Positions 37,154 through 43,942 of a DNA stretch of 43,942 nucleotides are shown in pieces; positions within the stretch are counted from its first letter, which is position 1, and the number at the start of each line of letters is the position of its first letter. The stretch is from an uncultured Thermoanaerobaculum sp. (GTDB lineage Bacteria; Acidobacteriota; Thermoanaerobaculia; Thermoanaerobaculales; Thermoanaerobaculaceae). The stretch covers positions 1 through 43,942 of the forward strand of contig CALHAH010000018.1 in the NCBI GenBank assembly GCA_937934115.1, read 5' to 3'. The position numbers and the translations under genes were made by a program. The notes beneath the pieces were generated by a model that was not told where the DNA came from, ran no database searches, and saw nothing but the letters and a program-made list of their open reading frames with translations.

Positions 37154-39711
37154 GAGCCAACCTCCTTTTTAAGCTCTGCTAAAACGTTGAGAGCTTCCAG
37201 CGGTGTCAACCGGTTCACATCCAGCTGCCGTATCCGCTCCGCCAGCCACTGGTAGTCGCTGGTAAAAAGGGAAAGCTGCTGGGGTTCCCCCGGCGGTCTG
37301 TGGGGCACCGTGCCGTTGGCGGCGGAAATCTCCGCCAAGATGGCATCAGCCCGTTGACACACCGCTTCCGGTACTCCAGCTAGGCGCGCCACGTGAATCC
37401 CATAGGAGCGATCCGCCGGGCCGGGAATCACGCGATGCAGGAAAAACACCTTTCCCTGCCACTCCTTGACCGCCATGGCAGCGTTAAAAACCCGCGGCAA
37501 ACGGGTGGCCAGCTCGGTGAGCTCGTGGTAGTGGGTGGCAAAGAGCACCAACGGACCACCGCCGGGGAGGTCGTGGAGATGCTCCACCACGGCCCACGCC
37601 AGGGAAAGGCCGTCGTACGTGGCGGTTCCTCGCCCCACTTCGTCGAGCACCACCAAGGAGCGGTTGGTGGCGTGGCGCAGGATATGCGCCACCTCGCTCA
37701 TCTCCACCATAAACGTGGACTCCCCGCGGGCAATGTCGTCCGAGGCCCCCACCCGCGTGAAGATGCGGTCGAAGGGACCAATTTCCGCTGCATCAGCGGC
37801 CACAAAGGAACCAGCCCTGGCCATCAACACGGCCAGTGCCACCTGGCGAAGAAACGTGGACTTTCCACCCATGTTAGGGCCGGTAAGGATGAGGATTTGC
37901 TTGTCTTGCGCCTCCAGGGCAAGGTCGTTGGGAACAAAGGCCTCGTTGGAAATGGCCTCCACCACCGGGTGGCGAGAAGCTTCCAGCTTGAGTACGGGCT
38001 CGGAAACCAGCCGTGGCCGGCAGTACCGCTGCTCCCGCGCCCGATGGGCAAAGGCCGCCAGCACATCCACCGTCGCCAGAAGGCGCGCGGTGGTGGCTAC
38101 CCGTTTCGCCTGGGCAGCCAAACGCTGCAGGAGCGCGGCAAAAAGCTCACGCTCCCGTTCCTCCGCCCTCTTTTCCGCCGTGAGGATTTGCTCTTCCAGC
38201 TGGGAAAGCTCCTCGGTGACAAAACGCTCGGCCTGGGTTAGGGTTTGCCGTCGCACCCAATGTGCGGGCACCTTGTCCAAATTGGCCTTGGAAACCTCAA
38301 AGGCGTAGCCAAAAAAGGAGTTGTAGCGAATCTTCAACGACGAAATTCCAGTGCGCTCGCGCTCCCTTGCCTCCAGCTCCGCCAGCACTTCTTTAGCGCC
38401 GTGGGCTAACCGCCGGGCGGCATCCAGCTCGGGGTCTACGCCGGCAGCGATGGTCCCCGGTCCCAAAACCGCCGGCGGGCTTGTCGCCAGCGTCTTCTCC
38501 AAATCGGCACCCACATCGCACAAGGGGTCCAGCCGTTGCCCGATTTCCAACAAAAGCTCGCTGTTAGCGGAAAGCAACAGCTCACGCAGTCGAGGCACAA
38601 CCGGCAAAGCCTGACGCAAACCGGAAAGCTCGGCAGGACGTGCTTGCGCAAACCCCAAACGCGCCGCTGCTCGCTCCAAGTCCCCCACCGCGGGAAGATG
38701 AGAGCGGAGCTGATGGTGGAACTCCAGATTGTCAAAAAGCTCCGCCACCGCTTCCAAGCGCCTCTCCGCTTCGGCGGCCGACGGGGGACGCACCAACCAC
38801 TCTCGCAGCAACCGCGACCCCATGGGGGTGCAGGTGGCGTCCAAAATGGTTGCCAGGCACGCTTTCCTGCCCCCGCTGCTGTCCTTCAGGATCTCCAGAT
38901 TACGCACGGTGGCGGCATCCAGCACCAGCCCGTGACCCACCCCAAGACGGGTAAAGCCCGCAAAATGCTCGGGAAGGCGCCCTTGGGTTTCCTCCAGGTA
39001 AAAAAGCAACGCTCCCAAGGGCCCCAACACCTCCTCGCCCGCCTCCAAACCTAAGGCCCGCACGGAACCCACACCAAAGGCTTTTTTGACCTTTTCTTCC
39101 CCGCGTTCCGTCTGAAACCAGGCCCGGCTCCTCTTGCTCACCACCGGGCGTGCCAGCTCCGGAGGCCACACCTGCGCCAGATCCACACCGTCCTCAGGCA
39201 GCAGCACCTCTTTCGGTTGAAGTTGCGCCAAAATCTCCCGAACTTCCTCGGCCATTGCTGGAGCCATTCCGGAAAGCGTACCGCCCGCCACGTCAGCCAC
39301 CGCTATGGCGAAGGACCCCTTCCCCACCAGCGCCACCAAGAAACGTCGTTCGCCTCCCGGGAGGAGCTCGGGCTCCGTCACGGTGGAAGGCGTGAGAACG
39401 CGGACAACCTCCCGCCGCACCAAGCGCTGGCCCTGAGGTTCCTCCACCTGCTCCGCGATAGCGACCTTAAACCCCGCCTCCAAAAGCTTGCCCACGTAAC
39501 TTGTAAGCGCGTGGTGGGGGATCCCGCACATGGGCGACTCCACCTCCTCGTTGTGGCGTCGGCGGGTAAGAACCACACCCAAAACCGGTGCAGCTTTTTC
39601 CGCATCTTCAAAGAAGAGCTCGTAGAAATCTCCCAGCCTGTAGAGGAGGAGCGCATCGGGGTTCTGCTGCTTCAGCTCCAAGTACTGTTGGAGCATGGGG
39701 GTCTTCTTCAT
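37150..39711 (-). CDS. mutS: DNA mismatch repair protein
   Basis: An 853-residue MutS. The mismatch-reading Phe-x-Glu lies in GDFYELFFEDA near the N-terminus, followed by the connector, lever and clamp regions. The ATPase at about 590-780 has Walker A GPNMGGKST, Walker B LVVLDEVGRGT and the FATHYHEL segment. A helix-turn-helix and a short tail close the protein. It recognises mispairs and recruits MutL, which is not in the window. I start at the ATG at 39711 because the MutS N-terminal sequence begins there. It has no ribosome site, but TACAAT lies nine bases upstream. Confidence 0.97.
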   Translation of the reverse strand: MKKTPMLQQYLELKQQNPDALLLYRLGDFYELFFEDAEKAAPVLGVVLTRRRHNEEVESPMCGIPHHALTSYVGKLLEAGFKVAIAEQVEEPQGQRLVRREVVRVLTPSTVTEPELLPGGERRFLVALVGKGSFAIAVADVAGGTLSGMAPAMAEEVREILAQLQPKEVLLPEDGVDLAQVWPPELARPVVSKRSRAWFQTERGEEKVKKAFGVGSVRALGLEAGEEVLGPLGALLFYLEETQGRLPEHFAGFTRLGVGHGLVLDAATVRNLEILKDSSGGRKACLATILDATCTPMGSRLLREWLVRPPSAAEAERRLEAVAELFDNLEFHHQLRSHLPAVGDLERAAARLGFAQARPAELSGLRQALPVVPRLRELLLSANSELLLEIGQRLDPLCDVGADLEKTLATSPPAVLGPGTIAAGVDPELDAARRLAHGAKEVLAELEARERERTGISSLKIRYNSFFGYAFEVSKANLDKVPAHWVRRQTLTQAERFVTEELSQLEEQILTAEKRAEERERELFAALLQRLAAQAKRVATTARLLATVDVLAAFAHRAREQRYCRPRLVSEPVLKLEASRHPVVEAISNEAFVPNDLALEAQDKQILILTGPNMGGKSTFLRQVALAVLMARAGSFVAADAAEIGPFDRIFTRVGASDDIARGESTFMVEMSEVAHILRHATNRSLVVLDEVGRGTATYDGLSLAWAVVEHLHDLPGGGPLVLFATHYHELTELATRLPRVFNAAMAVKEWQGKVFFLHRVIPGPADRSYGIHVARLAGVPEAVCQRADAILAEISAANGTVPHRPPGEPQQLSLFTSDYQWLAERIRQLDVNRLTPLEALNVLAELKKEVGS

Positions 39712-39720
39712 ACGCCGTGC

Positions 39721-39726
39721 ATTGTA
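39721..39726 (-). promoter_or_regulatory. -10 box just before mutS
   Basis: On the minus strand TACAAT ends nine bases before the mutS ATG. The predicted leader is two to three bases, so mutS is probably leaderless or nearly so. No clear -35 is seen. Confidence 0.45.
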
Positions 39727-39802
39727 GTGGACGGGAAAAGCACCGCCCACAGCTCCCTCTACCCCCGCACCACGCTGTGGTCGCCTCGTGGGAGTGTGTT
39801 AG

Positions 39803-40636
39803 TTAGCCAAAAACCGCAGGTTCGCTTCCAAACCAGCGGGCAAGGCGCTGGGAAGCCTCCACCACCAAAGGCGAGTACTCGAAAAGTGCCATTTCCAGCT
39901 CATTGAAAGCTTCCCTAACCTCGTCCGGCCTTCCTCCACGCACCGCCGAAAGGCCCCGGTGAAGCCCTGCCCGGGCCCCGGGGGAAAGATCCGCCCTGGC
40001 CATTTCTTTCACCAGCACGGTTTCTAGATAGGCCAACAGGTTGGCCCACGTTTGCACTGCCGGTTCCTGGGAAGGCGGCGGTGCTTGCCAAGCCTCTTTT
40101 TCCGCGGCAACGGTGGCGGCCTCCTCCACCGGGAACTCCTCCGGAGCTGCCGGTAGGGCCTCCACACCACCCTTGGCAGCGAGCTCCACCGCCGCTTCCT
40201 TACCTGTGGGGCTCAAGCCCTGCGGAAGAGCTTGCAGTTGCTGGGAAAACCGCCCCAAAAGCAAGTAAAGCTCCTTTTCCGAGGCAAAATTCCCCACCAA
40301 GCGGGCAGTTCTATCCAGCTCCAGTTGCTCTGAATCGCGGATTACAATAAAAGCCTGCGCCCCTTTTTCCAGCACCACCCGCCGTGCCTTCACGTGCCAC
40401 GCGGTCAAGGAGCCCGCAATAAAGCACGTATCGGCCACCTGCACCGTCACCGCATCCACCTTCACATTGGGATCAATGCGCAGCGAGCCGGAGGTAGAAA
40501 CGATATGCGAGTAGTTTCCTGGGTTTTGGATAATCAAGTTTCCCGGCGTGCGAATGGCCAACTGCCCGGCATCGTTCACCGTAATTTCGGTCCCCTGGGG
40601 GATGATCATCGTGGGTAACGCTTGGTTTTCAGCCAT
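39803..40636 (-). CDS. Bactofilin-like protein with a long C-terminal extension
   Basis: A 277-residue protein. Residues about 10-130 form regular short beta-strands (IPQGTEITVNDAGQLAIRTPG, NLIIQNPG, VDAVTVQVADTCFIAGSLTA), the beta-helix style of bactofilins, which polymerise at the membrane. The C-terminal half is Ala/Glu-rich with a Pro-rich linker and a helical end, and is longer than in simple bactofilins. The ATG at 40636 has GGAGGAG upstream and lies inside the 3' end of the M23 peptidase gene. Bactofilins often work with M23 peptidases in cell shape, which supports the call. Confidence 0.72.
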   Translation of the reverse strand: MAENQALPTMIIPQGTEITVNDAGQLAIRTPGNLIIQNPGNYSHIVSTSGSLRIDPNVKVDAVTVQVADTCFIAGSLTAWHVKARRVVLEKGAQAFIVIRDSEQLELDRTARLVGNFASEKELYLLLGRFSQQLQALPQGLSPTGKEAAVELAAKGGVEALPAAPEEFPVEEAATVAAEKEAWQAPPPSQEPAVQTWANLLAYLETVLVKEMARADLSPGARAGLHRGLSAVRGGRPDEVREAFNELEMALFEYSPLVVEASQRLARWFGSEPAVFG

Positions 40637-41580
40637 GGCCAAGACTCCTCCTCCGGCAGCAAATCCAGCGGCGTGTCCACCTCCCCTCCCACCGCCTTTG
40701 CTCCCTCCCTCACAGGATAATCCAACATGAAGAAAAATGGGTCGGTAGGCACAAGCACATCCTGCCCCACCTTGCGCCGCACCTCGTAATGCAAGTGCGG
40801 CGCCGTGGACCATCCTGTGCTCCCCACAGAGCCTACCACCTCACCGCGATGAACCTGCTGCCCTGGGCGTACAAGCACCTCTTTTAAGTGAGCAAAAATG
40901 GTCACGAACCACTCGCCGTGTTCCACCACTACCACGTTGCCAAGGCGCGCCCACGATGGATTTTCTGGCCCTACCCTACCGGCGAAGACCACCACGCCCT
41001 TGCCCGTGGCCTTGACGGGCAACCCCGCTGGGGCTGCCAAATCCACCCCTTTGTGTCGTTCGTAAGTGCCGGTGAACGGCGAAACCCGCACGCCAAAAGG
41101 AGAGCTCACCTCAAAGCTTCCCGGCGGCAACGGGCAAATGGACGGCAGGGATTCCACCAATTGCCGGTGGGCGTGGGCAAAACCCACCAGCTCCTCGGCG
41201 CGAACCACCAGCGCATGAGCTTTTTCCAGCAACTCATCACCGGCCAAAAGGTCATCGCTAGCCGCCGGCGAAAACCCCAAAATCAGCCCCAGTCGCCGCA
41301 GCTCCCTAGCAGCTGCCGTTATTTGCTGGTCCAAAACCTGCTGCTTTTCCAAAAGTGCCCGGTGCTGCTCCCTTAGGTTGGCATTAACACGACGGCTTTC
41401 CTGCAACTTGGCCCAAAGGATCAGGGATTGCACCCCCCGGGGCATTTGCCAAAGCCCTGCCACCACCACTCCCAAAGCCATCGCCACCAGCCCCGCCGCA
41501 CACCAAAGTTGCCGTCTCGTTAAAAAGTAATAACGAGCCGATCGCGACACATCCGCCGGGTGGATTTGGACCTCAACCAT
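40606..41580 (-). CDS. Membrane-anchored M23 peptidase (LytM type)
   Basis: A 324-residue envelope enzyme. It has an N-terminal cytoplasmic stretch, one membrane helix (about 26-45), a coiled-coil (about 55-105), then an M23 domain (about 160-290). The zinc site is complete: HKGVDLAAPAG gives His and Asp, and the late HLHYEVR gives the HxH pair. It should cut peptidoglycan cross-bridges in the periplasm or activate amidases. Its last 31 bases overlap the bactofilin gene, which suggests the two are co-expressed in wall shaping. The ATG at 41580 is preferred to an upstream start that lies before the anchor. Confidence 0.9.
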   Translation of the reverse strand: MVEVQIHPADVSRSARYYFLTRRQLWCAAGLVAMALGVVVAGLWQMPRGVQSLILWAKLQESRRVNANLREQHRALLEKQQVLDQQITAAARELRRLGLILGFSPAASDDLLAGDELLEKAHALVVRAEELVGFAHAHRQLVESLPSICPLPPGSFEVSSPFGVRVSPFTGTYERHKGVDLAAPAGLPVKATGKGVVVFAGRVGPENPSWARLGNVVVVEHGEWFVTIFAHLKEVLVRPGQQVHRGEVVGSVGSTGWSTAPHLHYEVRRKVGQDVLVPTDPFFFMLDYPVREGAKAVGGEVDTPLDLLPEEESWPWLKTKRYPR

Positions 41581-42372
41581 ACACCACCTCGTTTTAGGGT
41601 AACACGATCCTTTGCCAATTCCCCCTCGGACCTCCAAGCCTCCCCCAGCCCTCGCCCCTATCTACCCTTAAATGAAAGCTCATCTCTTCTTCAGATTCGC
41701 CCCGAAACCCCCTGCCACAGGTAACCTGCGCCGCCGCAGGTCCCCCTTCCCGCCCTTCTGCGAACGCCAAAACTATCTGTGGCATTCGCGAACACACTCC
41801 CTAGCACAATCACGTTCTGCATAACCAATGAACAAAATGGGGCCCATTGTTCCCCGCTGTTGCTCCCCAAACCCTTTGCGGCTCTTAAGAGGGGATTTGG
41901 ACTTCTCCGCTGCCACAAGGCTTTAAAGGCATATGGCCTCGGACACCTTCGGGCTTCTACCCACTGTCGGAACAAAGTGTTTCCACGCCTTTTTTTTTTT
42001 GGCCCCGGCAGCAACAAGCCTGCACTCTCTTAAGATACACTCCGTCACGAGGCCAATTGGTTTTCTCCCAAAAACGTACGCCACGCCGCTTTGCCCAAGT
42101 CCTATTTTGCACCGAAAAACGCGCGATCTTCCTCGTTTTCACCGCCAGGAGCTTCTCACCCCGCGCACGTCCCCTTCGCCCCCAAATGCGGCCACCGTGC
42201 CCTTTTTCGCACATTTTTCCCAAAGGGCCGGAAAGCTCCGTCGTTGCTTAGCGCCGCCAACCATCCCCGCTTCGGGTTTTGCCCCACGAAGATTTGCTCC
42301 CCCTCAAAAAACCCGCCGGCAAAAAACCTCCCTCAGAGCACCTCTTCCTGCCCCCTCTGCCCTTTCGCCTCC
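41581..42372. other. Gene-free stretch with several inverted repeats and a T11 run
   Basis: Nearly 800 bases with no gene I can support. The plus strand is pyrimidine-rich, so several frames stay open by chance. Structure is visible at 41714-41788: GCCACAG and CTGTGGC (41714-41720, 41777-41783) enclose a perfect 7-base stem ACCTGCG/CGCAGGT (41724-41741). A third stem, GCGAAxGCC/GGCxTTCGC, lies at 41760-41788. Further elements are GAACAA/TTGTTC at 41830-41852, the palindrome CTCTTAAGAG at 41882-41891 and eleven T at 41990-42000. A structured RNA is possible. I found no RNase P, tmRNA or SRP signature. Confidence 0.5.
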
Positions 42373-43395
42373 TTACCCCTTCCTCTCAGCGTAGCGTTCC
42401 CGCAATCCCAAAAGCAGTCGCGCCAGAAGCAGCAGCATGGGCAGCTCCACCACAGGGCCCAAAATGATCGCCAGATAGACAAGCGGACGGCCGGGAAAAG
42501 CCGCGACCGCCACGCCAATTACGGCCTCCGAGTTTCTGGCAGTGGTAGTAAAAGCCATCGTCACCGTGTCTTCATAACCCAAGCGGAACACCTTGCCCAA
42601 AACTAACGCCAGCAAAAACAACACTGAGAAAAAAATGATCAAAAACACGATTAAAAGCCCGACCTTCTGAACGTCTTCCAGGTGAATGGGCTTCTGTGAC
42701 AAGAACACGCTCATGATCACGATTACCAGTGCCCATAACTTCACCTCCCCCATCGCCGACGTAAAGCGACCGAAAAAGTACTCGCGCCCTTTTTTTCGTA
42801 TCACACTTCTTTGCACAATATATGCCAACACAAAAGGCGCGACAAGAAACAAAACCACGCTCCTTACAAGTGTTGCAAGCTCAACGGGAATCACCTTCCC
42901 AACGAGGATGTAGAGGTAAAGCGGCATCAAAAGCACCTGCAGTGTTATGTTCCACGGTAAAAGAGCTATGCCCCATGCTACGTTGCCCCTTGCAATGTCC
43001 GTAAAAATCAGATACCACCCGATACACGGTGTAAGCGTGTATAGAATCGCACCCGCCCAGAAATCAGGGTACTTCTCTAGTATCAAACGCCCGCTTGTCC
43101 ACGCAAACGCCGGAATAAAGATGAAGTTCACAAACAAAGCTATCGCCGTTGGTTTTGTTTTTCTAAACGCTTCAGCCACATCCCTGATCTCTACCGGAAG
43201 CATAAACGCCATAATCACGAAGAAAATCCCAATTTCTGTGACATAGCTGAGCTCAGGAATCTCCCCGCCCGTAAGTCTTTGGATAACCACGCTCAAGAAT
43301 ACGGCACCGATGAGGATAAAGGGCTTTTCTTTGTCTTTTGTGGAAACCTGTGCCGTGGCTGCACCTCCGAACGCACTCCGTTTACCATAGCACAC
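42373..43395 (-). CDS. BASS/ACR3-type transporter (bile acid:sodium symporter or arsenite exporter family)
   Basis: A 340-residue inner-membrane protein with about ten hydrophobic segments. It matches the bile-acid:sodium symporter/ACR3 superfamily: TPCIGWYLIFTDIARGN in the first half and TTTARNSEAVIGVAVAAFPG in the second. The Thr-Pro-Cys motif resembles the conserved Cys region of arsenite exporters, but the match is not close enough to name arsenite as substrate. No arsR or arsC gene is near. The GTG start at 43395 is the only one in frame; GGAGG lies downstream of it with no usable start after it, so the exact start is uncertain. Confidence 0.72.
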   Translation of the reverse strand: MCYGKRSAFGGAATAQVSTKDKEKPFILIGAVFLSVVIQRLTGGEIPELSYVTEIGIFFVIMAFMLPVEIRDVAEAFRKTKPTAIALFVNFIFIPAFAWTSGRLILEKYPDFWAGAILYTLTPCIGWYLIFTDIARGNVAWGIALLPWNITLQVLLMPLYLYILVGKVIPVELATLVRSVVLFLVAPFVLAYIVQRSVIRKKGREYFFGRFTSAMGEVKLWALVIVIMSVFLSQKPIHLEDVQKVGLLIVFLIIFFSVLFLLALVLGKVFRLGYEDTVTMAFTTTARNSEAVIGVAVAAFPGRPLVYLAIILGPVVELPMLLLLARLLLGLRERYAERKG

Positions 43396-43617
43396 AACTC
43401 AGCTGCTGGCCCACGCTACAGCCCTGTCATTTAAGTAGCTCTTCACCGACATAGTGTGCGAATAAAGCCCTCCCTGTGAACCCTTTCGCCCCGACAGCTT
43501 CCCGCGGTTGCAACCTCCTTGCCAAGGCATCAATCTTGCTCGTGCCTCCTTTGAAGCCACGGTGTTACCGTCCCAGCCATTGTTGTGTGCATTCGGTCTT
43601 CACGTTTCCGCAGCATG

Positions 43618-43942
43618 GTTGTAACCCTCTTTTAAGCGAGGCGGTGATTTCTACCTTCTACGACGTACTAGCACATGGCACACCGTCCGAAGTCGTAATC
43701 CTCTTTTAAGCGAGGCGGTGATTTCTACCGATCACACAGCCAACAAAGTGGGCTGTCCACGGAAATGTCGTAATCCTCTTTTAAGCGAGGCGGTGATTTC
43801 TACCCGTTGTGGCGCTCCTGGAGGAAGCTGAGGCGCGTGACGTCGTAATCCTCTTTTAAGCGAGGCGGTGATTTCTACTGCCCCGCGCCGTTTGGCGCGG
43901 GGCTTTTTTTTTGACGTCGTAATCCTCTTTTAAGCGAGGCGG
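43618..43942 (-). CRISPR. CRISPR array, four full repeats plus one cut by the window edge
   Basis: Repeats of 37 nt start at 43618, 43692, 43767, 43842 and 43916 (the last cut at 27 nt). Four unique spacers of 37, 38, 38 and 37 nt lie between. On the plus strand the repeat begins GTCGTAAT and ends ATTTCTAC, with CCTC/GAGG able to pair. On the minus strand the CCTC/GAGG stem is followed directly by ATTACGAC, which looks like the 8-nt crRNA handle of type I/III systems (compare ATTGCGAC). Transcription from right to left is therefore likely, with the leader outside the window. The first repeat (43618) has two changes in its first eight bases, as expected at the old, distal end. Possible decayed copies lie at about 43507 and 43537-43572. 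No cas gene is visible, so the subtype is open. Confidence 0.95.
43880..43912 (+). terminator. Intrinsic terminator inside CRISPR spacer 4
   Basis: A perfect 10-base stem (43880-43889 with 43894-43903), loop GTTT, then nine T (43904-43912). It fills almost the whole 37-nt spacer. By shape it is one of the best rho-independent terminators in the window, and it reads on the plus strand, opposite to the predicted array transcription. Confidence 0.8.

What the first reader, a model, noticed from the sequence alone, without database searches (positions are those of the whole stretch)
43879..43915. A CRISPR spacer that is itself an intrinsic terminator
Spacer 4 is almost entirely a GC-only 10-bp hairpin, a 4-base loop and nine T. 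The flanking repeats are intact, so this is a true spacer and not the array's end. The donor DNA was probably the terminator of a phage, plasmid or the host. The guide RNA would fold on itself and might not target well. If the array were read on the plus strand, this spacer would stop transcription. Either way, it is a natural case of a spacer whose structure may affect its own array.
Basis: partly seen in the sequence, partly recalled or inferred. Interest (0 to 1): 0.8.

Follow-up and report, generated by a model that had tools for sequence, protein, structure and literature searches.

The report
CRISPR spacer captured from a terminator
One unit of a bacterial immune-memory array is a captured transcription stop signal, but it faces the wrong way to stop its own array, so it is an ordinary if eye-catching piece of foreign DNA that probably makes a poor guide.

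Summary
Bases 43879-43915 are a 37-nt spacer: T, a 10-bp all-GC hairpin with loop GTTT, nine T and GAC. It lies between one full repeat and a repeat cut by the contig end (27 of 27 bases present match). Chance cannot explain the hairpin plus T9, so the donor was almost certainly a functional intrinsic terminator. No donor was found; the spacer matches nothing else in its own genome.

The self-termination idea is not supported. A congener (G001) has an array of the same repeat beside a complete type III-B operon, and its cas genes face the array on the minus strand. The altered end repeat and a sub-threshold Rfam match agree. Read that way, spacer 4 is A9 followed by a hairpin, which is not a terminator.

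The likely consequence is a weak guide (inferred). The spacer folds on itself at -25.6 kcal/mol, and transcripts that stop at the donor terminator would lack the bases pairing with guide nucleotides 1-3 or more, the region that activates Cas10.

In two phage sequences, about 1 in 450-800 possible 37-nt spacers would contain a whole terminator, so the draw is uncommon but ordinary. The type III genes are absent from this assembly.

The parts
43879..43915 (-). Spacer 4 (37 nt). In guide sense (minus strand): GTCAAAAAAAAAGCCCCGCGCCAAACGGCGCGGGGCA. On the + strand it is an intrinsic terminator: 10-bp all-GC stem 43880-43903, loop GTTT, T9 43904-43912.
43618..43654 (-). Repeat 1, leader-distal end, two bases different from the other repeats (GTTGTAACCC... 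on the + strand)
43655..43691 (-). Spacer 1 (37 nt), no donor found
43692..43728 (-). Repeat 2; guide sense GTAGAAATCACCGCCTCGCTTAAAAGAGGATTACGAC (4-bp stem, then the last 8 nt ATTACGAC as presumed 5' tag)
43729..43766 (-). Spacer 2 (38 nt), no donor found
43767..43803 (-). Repeat 3
43804..43841 (-). Spacer 3 (38 nt), no donor found
43842..43878 (-). Repeat 4, full length
43916..43942 (-). Repeat 5, cut by the contig end (27 of 37 bases, all matching)
42373..43395 (-). Neighbouring gene: bile-acid:sodium symporter family transporter, lying downstream of the array in the direction of array transcription

Best explanation
Spacer 4 is an ordinary spacer of a type III-B-associated array that happens to have been cut from a GC-rich intrinsic terminator of an unidentified invader. 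The array is transcribed on the minus strand, so the terminator is inverted with respect to array transcription and does not stop it. The guide made from it is antisense to the donor transcript's terminator. It would carry a 10-bp hairpin of its own, face an equally stable hairpin in the target, and find no partner for at least its first 3 nucleotides in transcripts that actually terminated there, so it is predicted to be a weak guide. Shown: sequence, structure, strand of the cas operon in the congener. Inferred: transcription in this strain, donor identity, weak targeting.
For: Congener G001 carries the same repeat (1 mismatch in 30) at the start of contig C35. Its right flank holds, all on the minus strand and facing the array, cas2 (741-1034), cas1, PrimPol, Csx1, CARF-ADA, Cmr1, Cmr6, Cmr5, Cmr4, Cmr3 and Cas10, then Cas6. 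The altered end repeat in the window is at the far end from that leader side. All four full repeats match Rfam CRISPR-DR32 over 37/37 positions on the minus strand only, though below the gathering score. In that sense the spacer folds at -25.6 kcal/mol with A9 before the stem and A-GTAGAAAT after it, so no U-tract. Terminator donor: hairpin and T9 are far beyond chance, and two IMG/VR contigs carry the identical 10-bp stem with another loop followed by five T. Frequency: 0.12% (Brevundimonas phage, 50 kb) and 0.22% (lambda) of 37-mers wholly contain a terminator. Weak targeting: in the III-B VmeCmr complex a target mismatch at +1 or +3 nearly abolishes Cas10 activity, and target secondary structure lowers sensitivity by up to two orders of magnitude (PMC8682760). 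RNA ending after 6-9 U leaves spacer nt 1-3 to 1-6 unpaired.
Against: The strand is inferred from a congener; this assembly stops inside the array and holds neither leader nor type III cas genes. No donor sequence was found, so 'invader terminator' is not proved. No RNA data were available. If the host is a thermophile, structure would matter less.
Confidence: 0.85

Rival explanations
1. The array is read on the + strand and spacer 4 is a working terminator that cuts off expression of everything to its right.
For: On the + strand it has every feature of a strong intrinsic terminator.
Against: The cas operon beside the same repeat in G001 faces the array from the other side. The altered end repeat and the CRISPR-DR32 match also point to the minus strand. 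No sigma-70-like promoter was found on the + strand in 42300-43942, and every large Pfam-matched gene left of the array back to 31987 is on the minus strand.
Confidence: 0.05
2. The inverted terminator is kept because it blocks antisense (+ strand) transcription into the array, a useful insulator.
For: Its orientation would allow it: antisense RNA entering from the left would meet the terminator after spacers 1-3.
Against: It lies inside the array, not at its edge, so three spacers stay exposed. No + strand transcription unit was found to the left. No comparable element is seen in a relative: the stem plus T5 pattern occurs nowhere else in 149 genomes of the class.
Confidence: 0.03
3. The spacer was taken from the host's own chromosome (self-targeting).
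For: Terminators occur in host genomes, and the assembly is estimated at 96.7% complete.
Against: No second copy of the stem within 1 mismatch in the 2.42-Mb assembly; the nearest (2 mismatches, C36) lack the T-run directly after the stem. The array region finds only itself. No match in G001, G002 or the rest of the class.
Confidence: 0.05
4. Assembly artefact at the contig end.
For: The contig ends 27 bases past the spacer; hairpins and homopolymers are error-prone and the T count could be off by one or more.
Against: 27 of 27 bases of the next repeat are present and exact, and the spacer length (37) fits the others (37, 38, 38).
Confidence: 0.03

Closest known systems
Type III-B (Cmr) CRISPR arrays with a separate Cas1-Cas2 and a CRISPR-associated primase-polymerase (CAPP; PMC8211822)
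   Same: Same repeat as the G001 array that lies beside cas10, cmr1, cmr3-6, cas1, cas2, PrimPol and cas6
   Different: In this assembly the type III cas genes are not present; only the leader-distal end of the array was assembled
Native F. novicida Cas12a array spacer S7 with a predicted 10-bp hairpin (PMC6610086)
   Same: A natural spacer with a long self-hairpin expected to hinder guide processing
   Different: Class 2 system; [quoted passage not shown]
Rho-independent terminators upstream of type II-C arrays (PMC12080349)
   Same: An intrinsic terminator linked to a CRISPR array
   Different: Those lie upstream of the array in the direction that limits an unwanted guide; here the terminator is inside a spacer and inverted relative to the array

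Membership tests
CRISPR array (true spacer) | Near-identical repeats at regular spacing separated by unrelated sequences of uniform length | tested here: met
   Four full and one cut repeat of 37 bp, spacers 37/38/38/37 nt
Type III-B CRISPR-Cas | Same repeat next to cas10 plus cmr1, cmr3-cmr6 | tested here: met
   In congener G001:C35 only
Type III-B CRISPR-Cas | Type III effector genes in the same genome as the window | tested here: not met
   No RAMP family match, no Cas10, no type III Cas6 and no leader or cas1-2 DNA match in G000; the assembly is 96.7% complete and broken inside this array, so they may be unassembled
Intrinsic terminator (on the + strand) | GC-rich stem followed at once by a T-run | tested here: met
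   10 GC pairs then T9
Intrinsic terminator acting on its own array | Terminator orientation equal to the direction of array transcription | tested here: not met
   cas operon beside the same repeat faces the array on the minus strand; minus strand has A9 before the stem and no T-run after. Inferred from a congener, not from RNA
Intrinsic terminator acting on its own array | Measured loss of transcription at the T-run | not testable with these tools
   No RNA data
Self-targeting spacer | Matching protospacer in the host chromosome | tested here: not met
Phage- or plasmid-derived spacer | Matching protospacer in a phage or plasmid | tested here: inconclusive
   No exact match in IMG/VR and no match near identity over the whole spacer in INPHARED or PLSDB; best is 89.5% to an intergenic stretch of a Brevundimonas phage, typical of look-alike terminators

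The most novel reading that the evidence does not exclude
A terminator-derived spacer retained as a directional element inside an array, stopping antisense transcription through it, or giving a structured guide with a distinct role in a type III-B system.
Probability: 0.03. Interest if true: 0.5.

Novelty: new member of a known kind. Interest (0 to 1): 0.22.

Why it matters
It is a clean natural example of a spacer that is expected to be a bad guide for three separate reasons: it folds on itself, its target folds, and terminated target RNAs lack the bases that pair with the guide's 5' end. It could serve as a test case for how type III systems carry useless memories. It does not show that a spacer controls its own array.

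Tried and rejected
Exact and near matches of the hairpin were sought in IMG/VR, GTDB genome contigs, phages, plasmids, the own genome and 149 genomes of the class: no donor. Spacers 1-3 gave nothing in IMG/VR, phages or plasmids. The repeat gave nothing in GTDB contigs or IMG/VR. The Brevundimonas phage hit (89.5%, intergenic) was rejected as a convergent terminator, and the Rctr16k hit (inside a coding sequence) as a chance look-alike. The type I-G system on G000:C17 was rejected as owner of this array: its repeat is different. Literature searches for spacers that are terminators, or palindromic spacers, found no direct precedent.

Full report
What is there. The window is the whole of contig G000:C18 and stops inside a CRISPR array. 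The array has repeats at 43618-43654, 43692-43728, 43767-43803 and 43842-43878, plus a fifth cut at 27 of 37 bases by the contig end, with spacers of 37, 38, 38 and 37 nt. It is the only all-GC 10-bp hairpin in the window and the only terminator-like site in 42300-43942.

Is it more than chance. In random 37-mers with the window's dinucleotide make-up, a perfect 10-bp hairpin has probability 1.2e-4 and a T9 run 3.6e-4. The spacer folds with z = -5.5 (+ strand) and -6.2 (- strand), with no shuffle as stable. The donor was therefore almost certainly a working intrinsic terminator. How often should a spacer be one? With a modest definition of terminator, 0.12% of 37-mers of a 50-kb stretch of Brevundimonas phage Gurke and 0.22% of phage lambda wholly contain one (0.02% in a 16.7-kb phage fragment, 0.07% in host loci). 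So roughly one phage-derived spacer in several hundred will look like this. Public arrays hold far more spacers than that (own knowledge), so the case is expected somewhere.

Which strand is transcribed. A genome of the same genus (G001) carries the same repeat with one change at the start of contig C35. Next to it, about 580 bp away, come genes all on the minus strand and facing the array: Cas2, Cas1, a CRISPR-associated PrimPol, Csx1, a CARF-adenosine deaminase protein, Cmr1, Cmr6, Cmr5, Cmr4, Cmr3 and Cas10, with Cas6 beyond. This is a complete type III-B locus, and by the usual cas-leader-array order the array is read on the minus strand. Three further points agree: the altered end repeat lies at the opposite end from that leader side, where old repeats decay; all four full repeats match Rfam CRISPR-DR32 end to end on the minus strand only, though below the gathering score; and the 8 nt after the repeat stem on that strand, ATTACGAC, are the length of the usual type III 5' tag (tag length from own knowledge).

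Consequence for termination. In guide sense spacer 4 is GTC-A9-hairpin-A followed by GTAGAAAT. There is no T-run after the stem, so it is not a terminator for its own array. All large Pfam-matched genes to the left back to 31987 are on the minus strand, and no + strand sigma-70-like promoter was found in 42300-43942, so the forward terminator probably never meets RNA polymerase.

Consequence for the guide (inferred). The mature guide would hold a hairpin of -25.6 kcal/mol at 37 C and still -17.9 at 60 C. The intended target, a transcript read on the + strand, holds the same hairpin. RNA that terminates after 6-9 U leaves guide nucleotides 1-3 to 1-6 with no partner. In the type III-B complex VmeCmr, mismatches at +1 or +3 almost abolish Cas10 activity, and target secondary structure lowers sensitivity by up to two orders of magnitude (PMC8682760); another complex, TmaCmr, is more tolerant, as the same paper notes. 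In FnCas12a arrays, structure lowers guide abundance, and a native spacer with a predicted 10-bp hairpin has been pointed out (PMC6610086). So a weak guide is the most likely outcome, and only read-through RNA would be a full target. The orientation antisense to the donor transcript is the one type III needs, but without selection type III spacers come from both strands (PMC7515739), so this has an even chance of being coincidence.

Donor. No exact match was found in IMG/VR or GTDB genome contigs, and no near-identical full-length match in phages or plasmids. Two IMG/VR contigs hold the identical 10-bp stem with other loops and five T, which shows that viruses do carry such terminators but does not identify the donor. 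The own genome, two congeners and the rest of the class have no other copy.

Limits. The own assembly (2.42 Mb, 96.7% complete, 52 contigs) has no type III effector gene, no Cas10, no type III Cas6 and no leader match. Since the contig breaks inside the array, the adjoining operon may simply be unassembled, or the array may be an orphan; this could not be decided. No RNA data exist here.

Verdict. The sequence observation is right, the donor guess is probably right in kind, and the idea that the spacer affects its own array by termination is not supported. Interest is modest.

Noticed in passing
L026 (G000:C17:1-8146): The same genome has a complete type I-G operon (Cas3g, Csb3, Csb1, Csb2/Cas5-6, Cas4-Cas1 fusion) with a different repeat (GCTTCAATGGGGCCATCCTTTTTTGAGGATGGAAAT) at the contig start.
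   Followed up: partly
L029 (G001:C35:741-17588): Complete type III-B locus in a congener with two CARF proteins (Csx1-like and CARF-adenosine deaminase) and a CRISPR-associated primase-polymerase beside Cas1-Cas2.
   Followed up: partly
L029:510-660 and about 28 places in G000: A dispersed GC-rich palindromic element (around GCCGCGGAGCGGCGGCCCCACA) recurs through the genus, including the stretch between cas2 and the array in G001; it looks like a REP-type element.
   Followed up: no
window 38006-43640: The MutS/M23 block is conserved in G001 (79% identity, C25), but the stretch holding the SBF transporter and the CRISPR array gives no DNA match there.
   Followed up: partly
window 43396-43617: No terminator-like site was found between the array and the SBF transporter gene on the minus strand, so the array transcript may run into that gene.
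   Followed up: no
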